A stretch of DNA of 64,000 nt from an uncultured Erythrobacter sp. (GTDB taxonomy: Bacteria > Pseudomonadota > Alphaproteobacteria > Sphingomonadales > Sphingomonadaceae): positions 1-64,000 of the forward strand of contig CANKYZ010000009.1 of the NCBI GenBank assembly GCA_947488325.1. Reading direction: 5' to 3'. Shown here piece after piece: positions 1 through 14,021 of this stretch. Each line of letters starts with the position of its first letter. Within the stretch, counting starts at the first letter, position 1. A model generated the notes under the pieces. It searched no databases. It worked only from the letters and a program-made list of their open reading frames with translations, and was not told the DNA's origin. Position numbers and translations under genes: made by a program.

Positions 1-273
1 AAGATTTTAGAGACGCTCCAAACGCTCGACATCACTCGAATAGCCATCGCTCATAGGCCTGCGACGCTCGAAGCGGCAGAAAGCGTTTGGAAGTCGATCA
101 AGGGCGAACTGCGGCCGATTAGGTTGCGTGGATTGGCTCGTAAGGAGACTGAGTTGGCCACTGAAGAAGCATCAGGTCTTGTAGGCGCTCCACGTGCCAA
201 CGCCGCACGCCATGGGCCACTTCCAGCGCATTCACATGTTGAGTTCGATCAAGACGAAGCCGTGTCGTCTTGA
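1..273 (+). CDS. C-terminal part of an ABC transporter ATP-binding/peptidase-type exporter subunit (5' end outside window)
   Basis: Frame 1 is open from the window edge to TGA at 271-273: ...LETLQTLDITRIAIAHRPATLEAAESVW..., with an H-loop-like 'IAHRPATL' as in PCAT/bacteriocin-type ABC exporters. Not in the ORF track because the start lies outside the window. Confidence 0.72.
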   Translation, partial: KILETLQTLDITRIAIAHRPATLEAAESVWKSIKGELRPIRLRGLARKETELATEEASGLVGAPRANAARHGPLPAHSHVEFDQDEAVSS

Positions 274-318
274 TTGTTAGGCTTGGTCACGGCAACAACA
301 CAACTAAGGAGAAGCTTT

Positions 319-876
319 GTGCTTACTAAAAAGATCATTGAGAACACAGGATTCCGAGCTTTGACGCCAACCGAGCTTGGAACGGTCAGCGGCGGTGACG
401 GCCATATCATTGTGACAGGCAATACCGTCGGTGGCGATGGCGGTGGAACCTTCATGGGCGGCGGCAACGCAGGCGGAGGCTTCGCAGGCCCCCCTCCGAG
501 TGAGACTCAAGATGCCCCTGGAGATCCAGATGCCGGCAATCCGCAGGATCCAAGCGATATCGGCGTTCAAGTGGGTGATGCCGATGTGACTGCCACGCTA
601 AATGAAGACGGAAACCTCGAAGTCGATGTTGACGCGTCACCATCGCAATTCACACTCGGGGTCGAATTTGACCTTTCTAATTTGAGCGTTGAAAACATTT
701 CCGTAGGTTGGGCCGGTTTAAACTTTGACTTCTCACCCGATTTCTCGAACGCAACCACAACTTTCACCGATTCACAATCGGGCTGGACTGTGACAGCTAC
801 GTTCACGGATTCGTTCAATAGCCAGTTCAATGCACAAGAGCAGAAAGTCGTGCTCACGCTGTCGCACGGACTCTAA
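319..876 (+). CDS. Double-glycine-leader, Gly-rich secreted protein (bacteriocin-like/GG-motif exported protein)
   Basis: GTG at 319 preceded by TAAGGAG (305-311). N-terminus LTKKIIENTGFRALTPTELGTVSGGDG fits the LSxxELxxIxGG leader pattern; followed by a Gly-rich segment and a ~110 aa Thr/Ser/Asp-rich, beta-like domain. Confidence 0.7.
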   Translation: MLTKKIIENTGFRALTPTELGTVSGGDGHIIVTGNTVGGDGGGTFMGGGNAGGGFAGPPPSETQDAPGDPDAGNPQDPSDIGVQVGDADVTATLNEDGNLEVDVDASPSQFTLGVEFDLSNLSVENISVGWAGLNFDFSPDFSNATTTFTDSQSGWTVTATFTDSFNSQFNAQEQKVVLTLSHGL

Positions 877-896
877 CTAAACAAGGAGGCGGCCCA

Positions 897-1844
897 ATGC
901 CTTTTTTCGAACTTAAATTTTCAGCATGGCATTGGCCTGTAGTGGCTGCCTGCGCACTTTTTTGGGTGCAGGCAGCTACGGCTCATAATGTAGATATTCC
1001 GTCGAGCCAACGAAACGAAGAGCGGCGAGGCACGGTCACGTTTTTCAACAAGCCTGGTGAAATAAAATATAGCAATTTTGATGATCAGAATGGAGTCATT
1101 TTATTCGAAGCAAATCTTGAAGGAAGAGATGTTTTGGCATTGCTTGACACTGGAAGTGACTATTCTCTGGTCAGCACCTCGTTGATTGAGGAGTTGGGAA
1201 TTAGTCCTCAAGATGTTGCGGAATCAATACGAACAACGAACTCAGCGCAGTTATCAAGGCGTGTGCCGAACCTTAGGTTTGAGCATATCGACCAATATTC
1301 TATGACTCGAGATTTTTATACTTTTGATTTATCGGGAATGTCTCAAGCATTGGGGCGTCGCGTAGATGTCGTTATTGGATATGATCTTTTAAGTCAGCTC
1401 TCTTTTGTTTTGGATGGTAAGTCCAAGAGAATACTTGTGCTTCCCTCAGGGTTGATAACCCCTACCGACGACAGGTTTGCTGTTATCAGACTAAACGGAG
1501 GTGTTTTCGAGGGCTCTTTGAATGGTAGGAATACCCGCTTTGCCGTCGATTTAGGCTCAAATAGCGAGATATCCGTTTATGAACCCGCTTGGGAAAGACT
1601 CTTCGGCAACCAGCATATGGTTTCGCGTGGAAGAATTACGGATGCATCCGGCGTAACCCGCGCAGGGGAGGGTATAGAAGGAGTACAGTTGAGCGCATTT
1701 GGGGCTTCTGCGACGGTGTTTGTGACAAAGAAGCCGCGCGAGAATGGCAATTTTGACGCTCTAGTCGGATACCCCTTGTTTCATGGTAGGGTAACAATTT
1801 TCGATTATCCAAGAAATGTTATTTATTTTGAAAGAGAGCCCTGA
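897..1844 (+). CDS. Secreted retropepsin-like aspartic protease (two-lobed)
   Basis: Signal peptide-like N-terminus; ALLDTGSDYSLVS (DTGS) and a second degenerate FAVDLGSNSEISV motif; strong RBS (AAGGAGG) upstream, 20 bp after the GG-protein stop. Confidence 0.8.
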   Translation: MPFFELKFSAWHWPVVAACALFWVQAATAHNVDIPSSQRNEERRGTVTFFNKPGEIKYSNFDDQNGVILFEANLEGRDVLALLDTGSDYSLVSTSLIEELGISPQDVAESIRTTNSAQLSRRVPNLRFEHIDQYSMTRDFYTFDLSGMSQALGRRVDVVIGYDLLSQLSFVLDGKSKRILVLPSGLITPTDDRFAVIRLNGGVFEGSLNGRNTRFAVDLGSNSEISVYEPAWERLFGNQHMVSRGRITDASGVTRAGEGIEGVQLSAFGASATVFVTKKPRENGNFDALVGYPLFHGRVTIFDYPRNVIYFEREP

Positions 1845-2577: not shown

Positions 2578-3171
2578 TCACGCCGCTAACTTCCATTTTT
2601 CCGGATGCCACATTCGCTCGGCAAACATGCGTTCTTCACTGCCAACCACGTTCAGGTAGATTGCCGTTGTGGTGCTACTGGCATGACCCATCCAGCGCTG
2701 AATTAGATTGGGCGGGACTGATTGGGTTGCCGCCCAAATGCCAAAGCCATGACGCAGACCCTTGCAGGTCGCCATCGGCCCTTCAATCGTTGCCTCGGTC
2801 ATGACCTGTTTGATCCAGCGCCACGCGGTGGCGCGATGAATAGGCCAAAGCGAGGACTGGCCTCGTTTGGTCAATTCCAGCAGTGATCGAATGAGAAAGG
2901 CTGGAACTGGAACACAGCGAAAATGACGTTTTCGTCGCTTTAGGGTTTGAAAGATGACAGCGCCGCGATCTTGATCGATGTGGAAGCGTTCTAAGGCCAG
3001 AGCCTCAGAGATGCGACAGCCTGTGTACGCCATCAGATAGCACAGCGTCCTAATTTGCGTTGGCTGTCGATCAGCCACTTCGAAAAAGCGCAATCGCTCG
3101 CTTTGCGAGACGTATTTGCGCCGCCCCACCTGATCATAGATTTGCCAATCTGTCTGTTCTGTCACCGTCAT
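2578..3171 (-). CDS. Tyrosine recombinase/phage integrase family protein (catalytic domain)
   Basis: TGCRISEAL, LRHGFG, MGHASSTTTAIYLNV: R...HxxR...Y arrangement of tyrosine recombinases; 197 aa. Confidence 0.88.
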   Translation of the reverse strand: MTVTEQTDWQIYDQVGRRKYVSQSERLRFFEVADRQPTQIRTLCYLMAYTGCRISEALALERFHIDQDRGAVIFQTLKRRKRHFRCVPVPAFLIRSLLELTKRGQSSLWPIHRATAWRWIKQVMTEATIEGPMATCKGLRHGFGIWAATQSVPPNLIQRWMGHASSTTTAIYLNVVGSEERMFAERMWHPEKWKLAA

Positions 3172-4748: not shown

Positions 4749-5063
4749 TTATGCAGGAGCAGCATCCGCCGCGCCAAAATCGAACGGCTTGACCTTTATC
4801 GACTTCTCGCGCTGGCGCATGTGATAGGCCTCGTAGCGCGCCTGCATCTTAAGCAGCGTATCCATCTTTACGCCGAACGCTTTCTCAATCCGCAAAGCCA
4901 TCTCAGGGGAAAGCGAAGCATTTTCGTTGAGCAGCGTAGAGAGCGCAGGCCGCCCCACGCCCAATATCTTCGCTGCTTCGGTGACAGTTAAGTCATCGGG
5001 CAATACCGAGCGCCTTATAAACCCGCCGACATGCGGTGGTTTCATTCCTATTTTTATCGCCAT
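4749..5063 (-). CDS. higA: HigA-type antitoxin, XRE-family HTH
   Basis: MKPPHVGGFIRRSVLPDDLTVTEAAKILGVGRPALSTLLNENASLSPEMALRIEKAFG is typical of HigA. Confidence 0.88.
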   Translation of the reverse strand: MAIKIGMKPPHVGGFIRRSVLPDDLTVTEAAKILGVGRPALSTLLNENASLSPEMALRIEKAFGVKMDTLLKMQARYEAYHMRQREKSIKVKPFDFGAADAAPA

Positions 5064-5080
5064 AACGCACCTCCTTGTGC

Positions 5081-5362
5081 TCAGTGATAGTCTTCATAAT
5101 CCATGTCATACAGCTCATTAGTCTCTTCATCGTATTTGAAGGTGATCCGCCAGTTGGGCGTCACCGACAGGCTGTATGTTCCCGCGCGATCTCCGGTAAG
5201 AAGGTGCGGCTTATATTTTGGAAGCGCAAACATCTCATCGATCTGATCCATCGCAATCAGATATTCCAGAATATCCGTAATCTTCGGGACGAAAATCGCT
5301 GGCAAGCCTCTTGCGGAGCCCTTTTCCAACAGATTGCGCAGCCCCTTATGCCGAATATTGCG
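5081..5362 (-). pseudogene. higB: HigB-type RelE/ParE-superfamily toxin; N-terminus interrupted by in-frame TAA or using a non-ATG start
   Basis: Frame reads ATG GGG TAA CGC AAT ATT CGG CAT AAG GGG CTG ... = (M G *) R N I R H K G L R N L L E K G S A R G L P..., then canonical HigB sequence to ...WRITFKYDEETNELYDMDYEDYH. First possible bacterial start after TAA is CTG 5341, CTG 5332 or TTG 5329. Confidence 0.6.
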
Positions 5363-6043: not shown

Positions 6044-6607
6044 TTGTGTGGATCAAAGCATGATAGGAAAATCGATTTGATCGACCGGAACAAAGAGATA
6101 GGCGAACTCTATCGCCTTTTTTTTGAACCGTTATGCGCTTCAATTCGCAAGGCTTTTGGTTCTGGCCCGCCCGACCCGGATGAAATCGCACAATCGGCAT
6201 TCACCAAATATCTCGCCATGGAAAATACGGACCATGTGCAGAATCCCAAAGCATTTCTGTTCACGATTGCACGAAATCTGGTGATGGATTCTAAGCGACG
6301 GATGAAGCGCGGCGAAGCGTATGTCGCGGAGCAGTTGGCGATAGACCCGGACCTGCAATTGGAAAAAATAACGCCCGAACGCGTCTTATTCGAAAAGCAG
6401 CGGTTTGAGTTGCTTTTATCGGCGATAAAAACGCTCCCGCACAAACAACAGGTAGTACTGACGATGAACCGGTTACACGGAAAAACCTATGAGCAAATCA
6501 ACAAGGAAACCGGTTGGTCGTTGGGTGATATCAGCAGGAATTTGAATGCAGCCAAAGCCGCATTATTGGATATTCTGGAGAATTCAGATCAACAGTTGGC
6601 AAATTAA
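6044..6607 (+). CDS. ECF-family RNA polymerase sigma factor, FecI-like
   Basis: Sigma-70 region 2 (DPDEIAQSAFTKYL...NPKAFLFTIARNLVMDSKRR) and region 4 (LPHKQQVVLTMNRLHGKTYEQINKETGWSLGDISRNL), followed by fecR and an STN-TonB receptor. Confidence 0.9.
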   Translation: MCGSKHDRKIDLIDRNKEIGELYRLFFEPLCASIRKAFGSGPPDPDEIAQSAFTKYLAMENTDHVQNPKAFLFTIARNLVMDSKRRMKRGEAYVAEQLAIDPDLQLEKITPERVLFEKQRFELLLSAIKTLPHKQQVVLTMNRLHGKTYEQINKETGWSLGDISRNLNAAKAALLDILENSDQQLAN

Positions 6608-6633
6608 CCGCTTCATTTTGAACGTCGGACGAT

Positions 6634-7692
6634 ATGGGGGCGGCAATGGAATTGAAAAATACTAAAGAGGAAGCCCTTCATTGGCACGGCTTGATAAACA
6701 GTGGGGAGCCCGATGCCGTTCTCAGGCGTGACTTCGAAAGTTGGCTTGATAAAGACAGTGCGCATCGAAAAGCCTATTTTGAGATGGAGCAACTGTGGTG
6801 CGATCTCGATTATGTACTGGCCGCGCACGACACAGAAATTTCAAATTCAGGAAAACAGAGTGACTTGGAAAAATACTCGGCTTGGATGACGAAATTCATG
6901 AAGTATCCGAAAGCAACAGCAATCGGCTCTGCTATTGCCGCGATATTCCTCGTGGCTGTCGTATTCAATCTACCGGCGACAGTTTCTCCTGTTGGCATTC
7001 CAGCGCATCATGAAACCAAGATCGCAGAGTTGAAAAAAATCAGTCTGGAAGACGGTTCGATCGTCACGCTGGGTGCGAAGTCGCATATCTCGGTGTCTTT
7101 CGACGAAGACACCAGGATCGTGTCGCTAGTTGGCGGTGAAGCTTTCTTTGATGTCGCCAAAGACAGTGATCGCCCATTCCTGGTGGCGGCCGGCGACACG
7201 ATCGTTCGGGTTGTGGGAACGAAATTTGAGGTGAAATACGCCGATGATGATATCCGTGTCGCTGTGCTTGAAGGCAATGTCCTGGTTGTAAGAGGTGCGG
7301 AAATAACCGATGTTGCACGATCTCAAGACATCGCGATCCTGAAGGACCGGTTTGAAACCGAGACATTGACGGAAAACTTGAAATTTTCCGCAGGTAGCGG
7401 CTCCGATGCTGTCCAGAAACTGGATCAGGCTGTCCCGGGCACATGGAGGAGCGGACGATTGGCCTATGAGGACGCCAGCCTTTCAGAAATCATCGCGGAT
7501 GTGAATCGCTATTCTCAGCGCTCCATCGAGATCGACGATGAGAGCCTCAAAAGTCTACGCTTCACAATGGGATTCAAAACAAGTGAAATCAGCCAATTGC
7601 TCGCAATCCTGGATAGCAGTGAAGTAATTGAGGTTCTCGACGATGACACCAATACGATTATCATTCGAGCTGAGGTGGCATCCGAAGAGTAA
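6634..7692 (+). CDS. FecR-family anti-sigma/transmembrane regulator
   Basis: N-terminal ALHWHGLINSGEPDAVLRRDFESWLDKDSAHRKAYFEMEQLW, single TM (AIGSAIAAIFLVAVVF), FecR domain DGSIVTLGAKSHISVSFDEDTRIVSLVGGEAFFDVAKD. Confidence 0.93.
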   Translation: MGAAMELKNTKEEALHWHGLINSGEPDAVLRRDFESWLDKDSAHRKAYFEMEQLWCDLDYVLAAHDTEISNSGKQSDLEKYSAWMTKFMKYPKATAIGSAIAAIFLVAVVFNLPATVSPVGIPAHHETKIAELKKISLEDGSIVTLGAKSHISVSFDEDTRIVSLVGGEAFFDVAKDSDRPFLVAAGDTIVRVVGTKFEVKYADDDIRVAVLEGNVLVVRGAEITDVARSQDIAILKDRFETETLTENLKFSAGSGSDAVQKLDQAVPGTWRSGRLAYEDASLSEIIADVNRYSQRSIEIDDESLKSLRFTMGFKTSEISQLLAILDSSEVIEVLDDDTNTIIIRAEVASEE

Positions 7693-7762
7693 AATCCGAC
7701 AGTTGTACAAGCGATTGAAATTGCGAAAAATGTTAAATTAATTAGGCCAAATTTGATTTTTC

Positions 7763-7790
7763 TGGAAAATTTTCCAATCCGGGCCGTCTC
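7763..7790 (+). promoter_or_regulatory. Candidate ECF (FecI-type) promoter overlapping a 14-bp perfect palindrome
   Basis: Palindrome TGGAAAATTTTCCA (7763-7776) contains GGAAAA as possible -35; CGTCTC at 7785-7790 as possible -10; placed between fecR and the TonB receptor. Confidence 0.4.
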
Positions 7791-7878
7791 CTTATGAGAG
7801 TCACAACTGATCGCAGATAATACCGTTTATAGAATTAGCGGTGATGGCGGTGGTGGTGAAAATGAGGGGAAGAGATAA

Positions 7879-10800
7879 ATGTCCAAGGGAAATCTGCTGC
7901 TTGCCAGCACTGTATTGTCGACAATATCAATCGCGGCGGGCCTGCCAAGCGCGGCTTATGCGCAAACCTCCAAAGTGCAATCTGTGAACACACAGAACAG
8001 GGCTGTGGTGTTCAACATCGAGGAGCAGGAGCTTTCATCCGCGCTGATTGAGTTTAACAATCAATCCGGCGTGATTGTGGTGGCTCCGCAGGAATTGCTC
8101 AGAGGGAAAAAAGCAAATCCCATTAGCGGAGCAATGTCCCCCGGACGGGCTTTGAATTTGTTGCTTTCTGGAGCGGGGTTGCGGGCCAAAGAACTTCCAA
8201 ATGGAGGCTTCACTATCATGGCCGCAGCAGTAAGCGTGGCCGACGGTGACGACAGCGAGAGTCCGGCAGCGGGGGAAGAGTCGATTGTCGTCATCGGAAC
8301 GCGGATCGAGGGCGCAGACCCGACCCAGCGCGTTGAGGTTATTACGCGTGAAGATATCGAAGCATCCGGTGCCAGCACTGTAGAAGATGCACTGCGGCGT
8401 GTTCAATCAAATGTTGCGTCGGTTAACTCCTTTTCTAGCGGTCAGGCTGCGGATCGTGAAAACCTTGCGCTTGGCCCCGTCCCGGACGGAGTATCTGGCG
8501 TCAACCTTCGTGGGCTGGGTACTGAAAATACGCTGGTATTGATCAATGGGCGCAGAGTTGCAGGTGTTGCGGGCAATGACAGCGGGTTCACCAACATTTC
8601 CAACATTCCGCTATCTGCTGTTGAGCGGATAGAGGTGCTGCCAGATGGTGCCTCGGCGGCATATGGCTCCGATGCCATTGGCGGCGTTGTGAATATCGTG
8701 TTGCGCAGCAATTATAGCGGTTTGTCTGTTACCGGTAGATATGAGCGAAGCAATAACAGCGCTGATCAAGTAAAATTTGGTGCGACCTATGGCACTGGAT
8801 GGGGAAGTGGTAGATTAACGGCGACCGCTTCCTATAATAGGAGGCAGAGAATCCGCGCAGCGGACGCGGGATTCACAACGAACTTTTATCCTGGTATTGC
8901 AACGGACTCGAACGGGGATACGGTTGACCTCGATTTTACGCGGGTTGAAGCTGCTACTGGTGGTGCAGTTGAACGCCGGACCTTTACCTTTTTTCCGGTG
9001 TTCATGGTTATAAATCAAAATGTGGCCCTGCCGGGCGACAATGACGGCCTGAATGTTACTGCGGCAGACTTCGTCCCTGTAGAGACCGTTTCGCGGACTC
9101 TGGATAGCGAGTTAATTCCAACTTTCCTGGGCCCCGATGAAGAGAGCTTCGGCTTTACGTTTGACATCTCTCAAGACATTTCTTCCGACTTGGAAGTCTT
9201 TGCCACTGCGTTTTATTCCCAAAACGAAACCTTCCGCGACAGCGTCGTTGGGCCGACGCGTATACGCGTGGGGGCAACCAATGCCTTTAATCCATTCGGT
9301 ACTGATATTTTTGTACGGTTCCGGCCACTTCAGGAATTTACCGACGGCATATTGGAGGCACCGAGTTTCAGTTCCCGGCAACGGCAATATAATTTCAATG
9401 CCGGGCTGCGCTGGAATATCGTCAACGATCTGGATCTTGAGGTAAGCGGCGGGTTTTCGAGATCAGCGAGCAGGCTTGAAACAAGAAACCGGCTAGATTC
9501 GTTCGCGGATGTTCTTAATTCCCCCGATCCCTCCGTAGCGCTGAATGCGCTTGGTAACGGAACGGCGCAAAACCCCAGCGCTATTCAAGCGCTATACGGC
9601 GTGAATGAGGTCTTCACCCCGGCGACCGAAATCTTCTCCATTGAACCGGTGCTACGGGGAAATGCGTTTGAGATATGGGGCGGTGATGTAAAATTTGCCG
9701 TGGGCGGGGATTACCGGGAAGAGCGTTTAAGCGACTCTCCTGTCCTGAGTTCCTTTGCGAGCATAGAAAATAACAAAAGAGAGTCCTTCGGCTTGTTTGC
9801 CGAAGCCAATTTCCCCTTAATCTCGCCAGCCAATCAAATCCCGGGTGTCCATTCCTTCTCGGTATCGGTGCAGGCGCGTTATGATGAATATCATACCGAA
9901 GGGCCCAATGGCGCCGATATCGACCAGAATCCCATCATTGAAAATATCAGCTATAACAGCCTGACCCCTCGCGTGGGTTTCGCTTACAGGCCGATTGAAG
10001 ATCTCAAGATCAGCGGATCATGGGGTGAGTCATTTCGCGCGCCGAGCACGGGCGATCTATTTGGTGTTTTCTCATCTCAATTCGATCAGCAACAAGCCGA
10101 CCCATTCGCTCCTGGTGGCCCCGCTATCGTAACGGTGCCATTCCTGTCAGCTAGCGGCAATGTGAACTTGAGGCCTGAACAAGCCGACAACTACAGTCTG
10201 GGCCTGGATTTCACACCGAGCGCCCTGCCCGGTTTGAGGTTCAGAGCGGATTGGAGCCGCGTGGAATTCACTGATCGTATTGTGAATGGCTTTATCGTGA
10301 GGAACCTGTTGTCAGCGTCTGATGACTTCCTTGCCCTGCCGGGTGTCGCGGAACGTGACGCAATGGGCAATTTGACACGCGTCAACATTTTCAACCTGAA
10401 TCTCGACAGCAGAATTGTGGAAACAATTCAGGGCGATATCGAGTATGTGCATGATACCCAAAGTAATGGAGAATTTACCTTCGGAATATCGGCCCTGCAC
10501 TATTTGGAACATGTCGATCAGATCTCTGAAGATACAGACCCGATAGAGTTGCTCGGAACATCAAGGGGGCCAGTCGAATATAAGTTGACCGGCCATGCCG
10601 GATGGCGAGGCGACAATGCCGGAGTTGATATCTTCGTTAATTACACACCGTCGAATATCAACGACTTCAATCAGGTCTTGAACGCGTTAGGCAACGATTT
10701 CGAACGCCTGAATATCGAGGTACCCTCATACACAACCGTGGATTTAACAGGATATTATGATATTGAGAAATTTGACTTAAAAATCGGCATTGGCGTCAGA

Positions 10801-10914
10801 AACCTATTTGATGCGGACTTCCCGATCAGTCCAACGGCGAGTCTCCCTTACGATCCAGTTCGGGTGGATCCGCGGGGGCGAGTGGCCTTTCTTGAACTTA
10901 CCAAATCTTTCTAA
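7879..10914 (+). CDS. TonB-dependent outer-membrane receptor with N-terminal STN signalling domain
   Basis: Signal peptide; STN-like FNIEEQELSSALIEFNNQSGVIVVAPQELLRGKKANPISGAMSPGRALNLLLSGAGL; plug VLINGRRVAG, RIEVLPDGASAAYGSDAIGGVVNIVL; C-terminal ...VAFLELTKSF. Confidence 0.95.
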   Translation: MSKGNLLLASTVLSTISIAAGLPSAAYAQTSKVQSVNTQNRAVVFNIEEQELSSALIEFNNQSGVIVVAPQELLRGKKANPISGAMSPGRALNLLLSGAGLRAKELPNGGFTIMAAAVSVADGDDSESPAAGEESIVVIGTRIEGADPTQRVEVITREDIEASGASTVEDALRRVQSNVASVNSFSSGQAADRENLALGPVPDGVSGVNLRGLGTENTLVLINGRRVAGVAGNDSGFTNISNIPLSAVERIEVLPDGASAAYGSDAIGGVVNIVLRSNYSGLSVTGRYERSNNSADQVKFGATYGTGWGSGRLTATASYNRRQRIRAADAGFTTNFYPGIATDSNGDTVDLDFTRVEAATGGAVERRTFTFFPVFMVINQNVALPGDNDGLNVTAADFVPVETVSRTLDSELIPTFLGPDEESFGFTFDISQDISSDLEVFATAFYSQNETFRDSVVGPTRIRVGATNAFNPFGTDIFVRFRPLQEFTDGILEAPSFSSRQRQYNFNAGLRWNIVNDLDLEVSGGFSRSASRLETRNRLDSFADVLNSPDPSVALNALGNGTAQNPSAIQALYGVNEVFTPATEIFSIEPVLRGNAFEIWGGDVKFAVGGDYREERLSDSPVLSSFASIENNKRESFGLFAEANFPLISPANQIPGVHSFSVSVQARYDEYHTEGPNGADIDQNPIIENISYNSLTPRVGFAYRPIEDLKISGSWGESFRAPSTGDLFGVFSSQFDQQQADPFAPGGPAIVTVPFLSASGNVNLRPEQADNYSLGLDFTPSALPGLRFRADWSRVEFTDRIVNGFIVRNLLSASDDFLALPGVAERDAMGNLTRVNIFNLNLDSRIVETIQGDIEYVHDTQSNGEFTFGISALHYLEHVDQISEDTDPIELLGTSRGPVEYKLTGHAGWRGDNAGVDIFVNYTPSNINDFNQVLNALGNDFERLNIEVPSYTTVDLTGYYDIEKFDLKIGIGVRNLFDADFPISPTASLPYDPVRVDPRGRVAFLELTKSF

Positions 10915-10953
10915 CACCAAATCTCCTGACGCGGGATTTCCAGGAAACCGAGC

Positions 10954-10986
10954 GAGTGGCCAAGAAGTTTCTCTTCTTGGCCGCTC
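10954..10986 (+). terminator. Strong stem-loop between TonB receptor and M16 peptidase genes (terminator/attenuator candidate)
   Basis: GAGTGGCCAAGAAG-TTTCT-CTTCTTGGCCGCTC: 14-bp stem with one G-U pair, 5-nt loop; no strong U-tract follows. Confidence 0.5.
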
Positions 10987-11057
10987 GTGCCTGATGCATT
11001 TCCAAAAGCGATATGGCGCTAAAACCTGAGTTTCATAATATGAAAATGAGTGAAAAT

Positions 11058-14021
11058 ATGAAAAAAAGCACTTTTGTTTGTTTGCTAATTGGACTGGGTT
11101 TTCAACCGGCGATTGCGCAAGATGATCTGTTGGCAGATATTGAGCATGTCAATCAAAGTGCGGATCATCAAATTCGCTTCCTGGAAAAAGTTGAAGCCAA
11201 AGATGATGCAATTGTCATCCCTTACGAAAAATATGAACTTGCAAATGGCTTGACCATCATTCTGCATGAAGATCGCTCAGACCCCCTAGTAAGTGTCAAT
11301 GTGACATATCATGTCGGTTCAGCACATGAAGAAATTGGACGTTCCGGTTTCGCCCATTTCTTCGAACATATGATGTTTCAAGGGTCCGAAAATGTGGGGG
11401 ATGATGAACATTTTCGCATCATTACCGAAGCTGGTGGAAATTTGAACGGTACGACGAGTTCGGATCGCACCATGTATTTTCAGAATGTTCCATCCAATCA
11501 GCTTGAGAAGGTACTCTGGCTGGAAGCAGACCGGATGGGCTTTCTGTTGCCGGCAGTGACAGAGGAAAAGTTCGAAATACAGCGCGAGACAGTCAAGAAT
11601 GAACGCGGGCAGCGCGTTGACAATGCTGCATATGGTCTAGTCGGCGAAAGGCTTGGCGAGGCCATCTATCCGCAGGGGCACCCATATTCCTGGCCTGTGA
11701 TCGGATATATTGAAGATCTGAATCGCGCCGACCTCGATGACTTAAAAAACTTCTTTAGACAATGGTATGGTCCCAATAATGCCGTGCTTTCCATCGGTGG
11801 TGATTTTGATCGCCGACAGACGCTGCAATGGGTGCAGAAATATTTCGGCGCTATTCCGAGTGGTCCAGAGGTGAAAGCGCTGGCCAAAAAGCCGGTGGTA
11901 CTGGATGGCGATAGATATCTTTCACTTGAAGATAAGAACGCTCCGGCTCCGATGATAGTTATCGCACTACCAACCGTATTTGCAAATCATCCCGACGAGC
12001 CCGCTCTGAATATTCTATCCTCTATTCTGGGTGAGGGAGAAACATCTTTATTGTATAAAAATATGGTGCGGAATGAACAGGCGACCAGCGCCTATACAAC
12101 ACACCGCTGCGCCGAATTCGGCTGTTCAATGTTAATCCTCGCACAGCCGAACACCGTGAAAGGCAAGGGATTGCCGGACATGGAGCGCGCCATGCGCGCA
12201 AGCCTGGCTGAAATTGAGCAACGCGGAATACAGCCGGATGATCTTGCGCGTGTAAAAAATGTCATCCGCGCACGCCAGATTTTCGGGCTGGAACGCGCCT
12301 GGCAGAAGATCATGAATCTGGCGGAATTCCAGATATCTACAGGCTCACCCAATGGAATAGAAAATGAGATTGGGCGATATGAAGCCGTTGATGCTGATGA
12401 TGTGATGCGTGTCTATAATAAATATTTCAAGGGACGCCCATCGGTTGTTTTAAGCGTCGTTCCCGATGCCCAAAAATATGAACTGGCACGTGCTGACAAT
12501 TGGCAACGCCCCGAGCGCATGATTGAAGAGCATTCCAACAGTGAAAGTTCGGCACCATCGCTCCAGAATCCGGCATCATCATCCTCTTCCGAAGATGCAT
12601 TTGACCGGAGTATCCAGCCCAGCGCATCGGACAATGTACCGGTCACCAGAATCCCTGATATCTGGAAAGCCTCTCTCTCCAACGGGATCGAAATTCTCGG
12701 CACAAAGAGCACCGAAGTGCCCGTCACAAGCATTTCGTTTCAAATTGCAGCGGGGCAGCGCGATGAACCCATGAACAAACTGGGTTTGGCGGCATTGACG
12801 GGATCGATGCTGAACGAAGCAACAGCGAGGTCGACGAAGGAAGAACTGGCCAATCGTATAGCCAAACTAGGTTCCCGTATCTCCGTTTTAGCCGATGACC
12901 AATATACAACCATACGGGTAAAAAGCCTGACGGAAAACCTTGATGCGACCTTGTCGATCGTTGCCGAGATGCTTTTTGAAAGCGCTTTTAACTCTGATGA
13001 TTTTCAAAGGGTTCTGGGCCAAAATCGGCAGAATATTAGGTCGCTTCAATCATCGGCCGGTGCCACAGCCAATCTTGCCATGAACCGCCTGCTATTTGGT
13101 TATGACACCGCTTTTGCACATCGCAATTCCGGCACGCTTGATACAATGTCAGAAATTACCATTGATGATGTAAAGGCATTTTACAGCAAGCATTATACAC
13201 CCGGGGCAATGCGGATAACGACCGTAAGTGATTTGCCCGAAGGCGAAATGGTGGATCGTTTGAGGGCATTCTCCAATCGCGGCGGGGAGACTGCGGAACA
13301 TCCACCCCTGCCAGAATTTCCTGATTTGAAGGTTAATGCGATTTACCTGATCGATAAACCGGGAGCGGCGCAGTCCGAAATCCGTATTGGCAAACGATTG
13401 ATGCCAGTGGATGCCACGGGTGAATATTTCCGCGTCACATTAGCCAATTTTCCTTTGGCAGGAAATTTCAGCAGCCGGATCAATATGAACCTGCGTGAGG
13501 ATAAAGGGTATACATATGGTGCCAACGGTTTGATCAAAGGGACGGATTCCTACGGCACTTATGTTGTTCAGGCTGCGGTTAGGACGGACGCAACGGTGCC
13601 TGCCATTCAGGAATTTTTCAAGGAACTGAGCGAGTATGCAATGACCGGCGTAACCGCAGAAGAGTTATCATTCACCAGGCAGGCAATAGGCCAGGGCGAA
13701 GCGCTTTCCTATGAAGGGTCGAGCAGCATGCTCCGGCTATTGACGTACATGCAGGAACATTCCCTTGATGTTGACTTTGTCGCTGAACAAATGCGCATAT
13801 TAGGCGCAATCGAAAAGGAAGAAATCGACACTGTTATCGATCGGCATCTAAATCCTGAAGACATGATCATGGTCATCGTTGGCGACAAGAACATGATCCT
13901 GGAGCCATTGCAGGAGCTTGGCCGTGAGGTAATAGAATTGGATATCAATGGCGATCAACTAACCGACACATCAGTTGGTAACGTGCAGGAAGCATCGGCG
14001 GTATCGAAAAGTACGGAATAG
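11058..14021 (+). CDS. M16-family zinc metallopeptidase (two-domain, periplasmic/secreted)
   Basis: Signal peptide MKKSTFVCLLIGLGFQPAIAQDD; HxxEH motif HFFEHMMFQGSENV; second inactive-like M16 half (ISFQIAAGQRDEPMNKLGLAALTGSML). Confidence 0.93.
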   Translation: MKKSTFVCLLIGLGFQPAIAQDDLLADIEHVNQSADHQIRFLEKVEAKDDAIVIPYEKYELANGLTIILHEDRSDPLVSVNVTYHVGSAHEEIGRSGFAHFFEHMMFQGSENVGDDEHFRIITEAGGNLNGTTSSDRTMYFQNVPSNQLEKVLWLEADRMGFLLPAVTEEKFEIQRETVKNERGQRVDNAAYGLVGERLGEAIYPQGHPYSWPVIGYIEDLNRADLDDLKNFFRQWYGPNNAVLSIGGDFDRRQTLQWVQKYFGAIPSGPEVKALAKKPVVLDGDRYLSLEDKNAPAPMIVIALPTVFANHPDEPALNILSSILGEGETSLLYKNMVRNEQATSAYTTHRCAEFGCSMLILAQPNTVKGKGLPDMERAMRASLAEIEQRGIQPDDLARVKNVIRARQIFGLERAWQKIMNLAEFQISTGSPNGIENEIGRYEAVDADDVMRVYNKYFKGRPSVVLSVVPDAQKYELARADNWQRPERMIEEHSNSESSAPSLQNPASSSSSEDAFDRSIQPSASDNVPVTRIPDIWKASLSNGIEILGTKSTEVPVTSISFQIAAGQRDEPMNKLGLAALTGSMLNEATARSTKEELANRIAKLGSRISVLADDQYTTIRVKSLTENLDATLSIVAEMLFESAFNSDDFQRVLGQNRQNIRSLQSSAGATANLAMNRLLFGYDTAFAHRNSGTLDTMSEITIDDVKAFYSKHYTPGAMRITTVSDLPEGEMVDRLRAFSNRGGETAEHPPLPEFPDLKVNAIYLIDKPGAAQSEIRIGKRLMPVDATGEYFRVTLANFPLAGNFSSRINMNLREDKGYTYGANGLIKGTDSYGTYVVQAAVRTDATVPAIQEFFKELSEYAMTGVTAEELSFTRQAIGQGEALSYEGSSSMLRLLTYMQEHSLDVDFVAEQMRILGAIEKEEIDTVIDRHLNPEDMIMVIVGDKNMILEPLQELGREVIELDINGDQLTDTSVGNVQEASAVSKSTE

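What the first reader, a model, noticed from the sequence alone, without database searches (positions are those of the whole stretch)
1..1844. Exporter + double-glycine-leader Gly-rich protein + retropepsin-like aspartic protease: candidate undescribed secretion/maturation locus
Seen: frame 1 (1-273) ends like an ABC exporter (IAHRPATL). 45 bp later an RBS and GTG start open a 185 aa protein with a near-ideal GG leader (FRALTPTELGTVSGG|DG) and Gly-rich segment; 20 bp after that, a secreted protease with DTGS and DLGS motifs. Known: GG leaders are cleaved by C39-peptidase ABC exporters (PCAT family). Inference: the retropepsin-like protease is a dedicated second processing, surface-release or immunity factor for the exported protein. 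I know of no described GG-peptide system using a retropepsin-like partner, but cannot search.
Basis: partly seen in the sequence, partly recalled or inferred. Interest (0 to 1): 0.8.

Follow-up and report, generated by a model that had tools for sequence, protein, structure and literature searches.

The report
Swappable toxin-like cargo with protease partner
An Erythrobacter genome carries several copies of an export pump whose exported protein sits next to a gene for a secreted protein-cutting or other hydrolysing enzyme; here the partner is an HIV-protease-like (retropepsin) enzyme, and the same pairing recurs in three more species, so it looks like a bacterial warfare cassette with an unusual partner enzyme.

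Summary
The window begins at a contig end inside the last ~90 codons of an ABC exporter. Relatives show this exporter has a Peptidase_C39 domain and an HlyD adaptor. Its middle is a collapsed repeat, and at least three contigs in this genome start at it. Each exporter end is followed by a different GG-leader protein and then a Sec-type secreted partner: retropepsin here, ClpP-like or alpha/beta-hydrolase at the other copies. The leader belongs to a 20-member family with invariant R, E, G, G. Retropepsin plus beta-rich GG protein recurs in three more Erythrobacter species; 4 of 5 readable members of the closest retropepsin subclade have the pair. GG-protein type tracks partner type (permutation p = 0.0004). 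The locus is therefore a cargo-and-partner cassette that swaps behind a C39 type I exporter. The role of the retropepsin is not shown. I favour proteolytic self-protection (immunity): it survives intact, catalytic Asp and all, where its GG partner has lost the leader or is gone. Two-step maturation (as CylA/LicP) is the main rival. I found no published GG system with a retropepsin in the open-access library. New variant of a known kind.

The parts
1..273 (+). C-terminal end of a C39-peptidase ABC exporter (5' part lies beyond the contig end); bases 1-77 identical to the exporter copy at the end of contig C7
306..312 (+). ribosome-binding site of the GG protein (AAGGAG)
   Evidence: read from sequence
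319..876 (+). GG-leader cargo protein, 185 aa, GTG start
319..396 (+). double-glycine leader, 26 aa (MLTKKIIENTGFRALTPTELGTVSGG)
   Evidence: V-4, L-7, L-12 before GG
397..555 (+). post-leader IIVTG motif and Gly-rich linker
556..873 (+). beta-rich C-terminal domain (nine predicted strands, low to moderate confidence), homologous to the proteins upstream of the G495, G502 and G348 retropepsins
897..1844 (+). secreted two-lobed retropepsin-like aspartic protease, 315 aa
897..983 (+). signal peptide, probable cleavage after ATA (residue 29)
   Evidence: read from sequence
1146..1148 (+). catalytic Asp84 codon (DTGS)
   Evidence: invariant
1548..1550 (+). catalytic Asp218 codon (DLGS)
   Evidence: invariant

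Best explanation
The locus is the 3' end of a C39-peptidase type I secretion system (HlyD adaptor, C39-ABC exporter, presumably a TolC-type outer channel) and the cargo cassette behind it. The exporter cleaves the 185 aa protein after GG and moves the 159 aa product, a beta-rich toxin- or surface-type protein, out of the cell. The 315 aa retropepsin crosses the inner membrane by its own signal peptide and acts in the periplasm on the product or its close kin. Most likely it is the cognate self-protection (immunity) factor, cutting product that comes back or leaks. Such cargo-partner pairs are exchanged by recombination at the conserved end of the exporter gene. Shown: exporter type, leader family, recurrent pairing, multicopy cassettes, conserved catalytic Asp. 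Inferred: export, cleavage, toxicity, periplasmic action, immunity.
For: Exporter: Peptidase_C39, ABC_membrane and ABC_tran in the relative, plus HlyD_3; own HlyD and C39 N-terminal half at the start of C2; assembly-graph overlap of exactly 77 bp. Cassettes: own genome at C9, C3, C7, C2:54k and C2:327k, GG proteins with differing partners, and a decayed copy of this pair on C4. Pairing: ABC end, GG176, retropepsin in G495; leaderless beta protein plus retropepsin in G348 and G502. A profile built without the window ranks the window protein first of 10,712. GG cores follow partner class, p = 0.0004. Immunity over maturation: retropepsin intact where the GG partner lost its leader (G348, G502) or is absent (G436), with pN 0.27 against saturated pS. 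Partner folds differ although exporter and leader are shared, as expected for immunity factors.
Against: No toxicity, cleavage or export is shown. Immunity proteins are usually small binders; here the partners look like enzymes with kept catalytic residues, which also suits maturation. Some loci hold a separate small membrane protein that could be the immunity factor as well as the hydrolase (G123, G418, G436, G409). The selection acting on G348 and G436 may predate loss of the GG partner. The C2-C9 join is not shown directly.
Confidence: 0.45

Rival explanations
1. Second-step maturation: after the exporter cuts at GG, the secreted retropepsin trims the product (for example the IIVTG/Gly-rich segment) to its active form, as CylA, LicP and MfuP do for lanthipeptides.
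For: Precedent of two-step processing after PCATs with secreted serine or metalloproteases (PMC10885120). Most partners in the slot look hydrolytic, with conserved catalytic residues.
Against: The post-GG segment is the conserved part of the cargo while the proteases are unrelated to one another; a common trimming step would predict one protease type. Retropepsin persists where the GG protein is dead or absent.
Confidence: 0.28
2. Surface release: the GG protein stays on the cell surface (as CdzC/D do) and the periplasmic retropepsin controls its release, in the manner of LapG and LapA (LapG/LapA from memory).
For: Beta-rich, Gly-rich cargo; a surface-bound type I product is known in Caulobacter (PMC5380434).
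Against: No adhesin or anchoring domain found; orphan retropepsins have no substrate next to them.
Confidence: 0.12
3. Neighbour without a link: the retropepsin is a common sphingomonad protease that happens to lie beside the exporter.
For: Asp_protease_2 proteins occur in all 29 exporter genomes tested and, apart from the window, only G070 has one near a C39 exporter. Many homologues sit next to helicase or acyl-CoA dehydrogenase genes or in metal-resistance islands.
Against: The close subclade has the pair in 4 of 5 readable loci, with intergenic gaps of 7-24 bp; partner class tracks cargo class; the decayed copy keeps both parts.
Confidence: 0.07

Closest known systems
Cdz system of Caulobacter crescentus (CdzABCDI, PMC5380434)
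   Same: Alphaproteobacterial type I exporter plus adaptor, small Gly-rich cargo next to the exporter, partner gene after the cargo.
   Different: CdzC/D are 84-86 aa and CdzI is a three-helix membrane protein; no secreted hydrolase belongs to the system. Here cargo is about 150-300 aa and the partner is a secreted enzyme.
PCAT two-step processing (cytolysin CylB/CylA, lichenicidin LicT/LicP, MfuP; PMC10885120)
   Same: C39 exporter cutting at GG, with a separately secreted protease encoded nearby.
   Different: Those proteases are serine or metallo enzymes acting on lanthipeptides; 'aspartic' and 'aspartyl' do not occur in the review. No modification enzyme gene was seen in this window cassette.
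Polymorphic toxin cassettes (CDI, Rhs; from knowledge)
   Same: Constant delivery part, variable C-terminal part, adjacent partner, decayed and orphan copies.
   Different: Here the constant part is a GG leader and the exchange point lies in the exporter gene; toxicity not shown.
Bacterial retropepsins (APRc, PMC4140852; Pseudomonas retropepsin-like enzymes, PMC12239564)
   Same: Retropepsin-type aspartic proteases of bacteria.
   Different: Not described there with a GG-leader cargo (titles and abstracts only read); the enzyme here has two DxG lobes in one chain.

Membership tests
C39-peptidase ABC exporter / type I secretion | N-terminal Peptidase_C39 domain with Q, C, H, D residues | tested here: met
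   Pfam match in G123; Q21, C27, H100, D120 invariant in five relatives; own N-terminal half at the C2 contig end, 95% identical to G123
C39-peptidase ABC exporter / type I secretion | window 1-273 is the same gene as the C39 half | tested here: inconclusive
   77-bp identity with exporter copy C7, whose C-terminal end has the ABC motif LILDEGTANLD; the join to C2 lies in a missing repeat
C39-peptidase ABC exporter / type I secretion | HlyD-type adaptor gene | tested here: met
   own HlyD at the start of C2; HlyD_3 in G348
GG-leader substrate | leader with hydrophobic -4, -7, -12 and GG | tested here: met
   V-4, L-7, L-12, GG; family alignment
GG-leader substrate | cleavage after GG and export | not testable with these tools
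   needs protein chemistry
retropepsin-like aspartic protease (clan AA) | Asp_protease_2 domain with catalytic Asp | tested here: met
   profile matches DDI1 and HIV protease chains
retropepsin-like aspartic protease (clan AA) | peptide bond hydrolysis | not testable with these tools
   second motif is DLG, not DTG/DSG; activity open
bacteriocin / toxin-immunity pair | cargo is toxic and partner protects | not testable with these tools
   only genetic pattern
Cdz | CdzC/D-like cargo and CdzI-like three-helix immunity protein | tested here: not met
   185 aa beta-rich cargo and secreted protease partner
CylA/LicP-type second-step protease | serine protease of the CylA/LicP type | tested here: not met
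   aspartic protease family

The most novel reading that the evidence does not exclude
Enzymatic immunity by unrelated secreted hydrolases: retropepsin, ClpP-like and alpha/beta-hydrolase partners each inactivate the cognate GG-exported toxin in the periplasm, and the pairs are swapped as cassettes behind a shared exporter.
Probability: 0.35. Interest if true: 0.82.

Novelty: new variant of a known kind. Interest (0 to 1): 0.62.

Why it matters
If right, one exporter and one leader serve a changing set of exported proteins, each tied to its own secreted enzyme. Either reading of the enzyme is useful: proteolytic immunity of this kind would be a rare way to be safe from one's own toxin, and an aspartic protease as second-step processor would add a protease class to GG-peptide maturation. 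The leader, the exporter-linked position and the partner list make such cassettes searchable in marine alphaproteobacteria.

Tried and rejected
The C8 contig end (HlyB-like ABC gene, 344 aa) was considered as the upstream half and rejected: G123's exporter aligns to C2 (95%) and to the window end, while C8 is 25%. A naive neighbourhood test with Asp_protease_2 in 29 family genomes gave no clear enrichment because the Pfam family is broad; the close subclade test was needed. Homologues of the precursor were absent from 151 family genomes and from plasmids. Single-sequence AlphaFold gave a beta-rich but low-confidence precursor and no usable retropepsin model; fold search gave nothing significant. 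PDB search with the single protease gave no match. The viral contig scan found no relative. ClpP-like naming of one partner class rests on weak profile matches and motifs. dS between the G348 and G436 retropepsins is saturated, so no ratio could be given. Paper searches for GG leader plus aspartyl protease found nothing relevant; the library is open-access only.

Full report
Observation. Open frame 1-273 has no start because window base 1 is base 1 of contig C9 of its genome. The 185 aa protein starts at GTG 319 and the 315 aa protease at ATG 897; both have good ribosome sites. The protease passes the Pfam cut-off for Asp_protease_2.

Upstream gene. A search with the intact exporter of a same-genus genome (G123) finds its N-terminal C39 half at the start of contig C2, next to an HlyD adaptor, and its C-terminal end at the start of C3 and the end of C7. 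C3 and C7 share an identical 77-bp end, and the first 77 bp of the window lie inside C7. That is how contigs of a k = 77 assembly end at a repeat (inference). The exporter middle is therefore a collapsed multicopy sequence. The window continues into the ABC domain of that exporter; the N-terminal part is inferred, not read through. The exporters of C7 and C9 are identical up to window base 77 and then diverge at once, which looks like an exchange boundary.

Cassettes in this genome. After each exporter end or remnant comes a GG-leader protein and a secreted partner: C9 GG185 + retropepsin; C3 GG168 + ClpP-like 321 aa; C7 GG199 + alpha/beta-hydrolase 344 aa; C2:54k GG161 + alpha/beta-hydrolase 355 aa; C2:327k a GG protein with a 457 aa homologue of the G449 partner downstream. 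Contig C4 holds a decayed copy of the window pair: window 677-798 at 90% identity followed by 978-1004.

Cassettes in relatives. Same-genus loci keep the order HlyD, C39-ABC, GG protein, partner. Partners are ClpP-like (G348, G409), alpha/beta-hydrolase (G420), an S9/S33-like hydrolase behind a small zinc-ribbon membrane protein (G123, G418), a 512-513 aa protein of unknown type (G436, G449), a multi-helix membrane protein (G426) or a small secreted protein (G422). Only the alpha/beta-hydrolase of G420 and the S9 peptidase of G070 pass a Pfam cut-off, apart from the retropepsins; the others are named from weak matches and motifs. Twenty leaders align with invariant R, E, G, G. Cores paired with the same partner class resemble each other more than others (p = 0.0004). 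Pairs inherited together as units would give this result too, so it shows linkage, not function.

The retropepsin pair. Among 114 genomes of the genus, 12 carry this retropepsin family. The subclade nearest the window has six members. G495 has the full set: exporter end, GG176 with leader MLQKNVIEKVTGFRTLDDNEIEAVSGG, and the retropepsin 7 bp later. G348 and G502 have a leaderless beta-rich protein 24 and 19 bp before the retropepsin. G436 has the retropepsin alone beside a transposase-like frame. G483 is cut by a contig end. A profile of the G495, G348 and G502 cores, without the window, ranks the window protein first of 10,712 (E 0.0085). Other homologues lie in unrelated chromosomal places, and beyond the genus only distant ones were found. 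Asp84 and Asp218 are invariant.

Mechanism. Export by the C39 system and cleavage after GG follow from the leader and exporter families. The partner's signal peptide puts it in the periplasm or beyond. I favour immunity because retropepsin genes stay intact where the GG protein has lost its leader or is gone (G348, G502, G436), and because the partners differ in fold while exporter and leader are shared. Maturation remains open: secreted second-step proteases after C39 exporters are known, and the partners look catalytic. Some loci contain an additional small membrane protein that could be the immunity factor. The cargo itself is not proven to be a toxin; its C-terminal domain is predicted beta-rich and matches nothing known.

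Known systems. Cdz is the nearest characterised type I killing system in this class of bacteria, but cargo and immunity protein differ.

Noticed in passing
window 6044-14021: FecI-type sigma factor, FecR, an STN-containing TonB-dependent receptor and an M16 peptidase in one direction; order recalls ferredoxin uptake (FusA/FusC, from memory).
   Followed up: partly
window 2578-3168, 4749-5329: Truncated phage-type integrase and an HTH/HigB-like toxin-antitoxin pair (minus strand) close to the cassette.
   Followed up: partly
L005 5660-11619 (G000:C4): A stand-alone C39-type peptidase among proteins with repeated GNxGVNxAxGxxNQQxN-like motifs and a 478 aa outer-membrane-like protein; reads like a Fap functional-amyloid operon.
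   Followed up: no
L096 4772-6161, L098 12956-14330, L210 5188-6577: Sulfotransferase-like gene plus a 269-282 aa protein between exporter and GG protein in some loci: possible modification of the cargo.
   Followed up: no
L075 731-1243, L098 15870-16892, L078 10942-11808: GG-leader proteins with enzyme-like motifs read by eye (CYVHD as in phospholipase A2; HExxH-like HEVGH); no Pfam support.
   Followed up: partly
L091 2606-10344 (G070): C39 exporter, GG111, S9 peptidase, duplicated exporter C-terminus and a PDZ/TPR retropepsin in one direction: an independent GG locus with a retropepsin.
   Followed up: partly
L006 8357-9388 (G000:C8 end): HlyB-like ABC exporter with a degenerate C39 domain lacking the cysteine, also cut by a contig end.
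   Followed up: no
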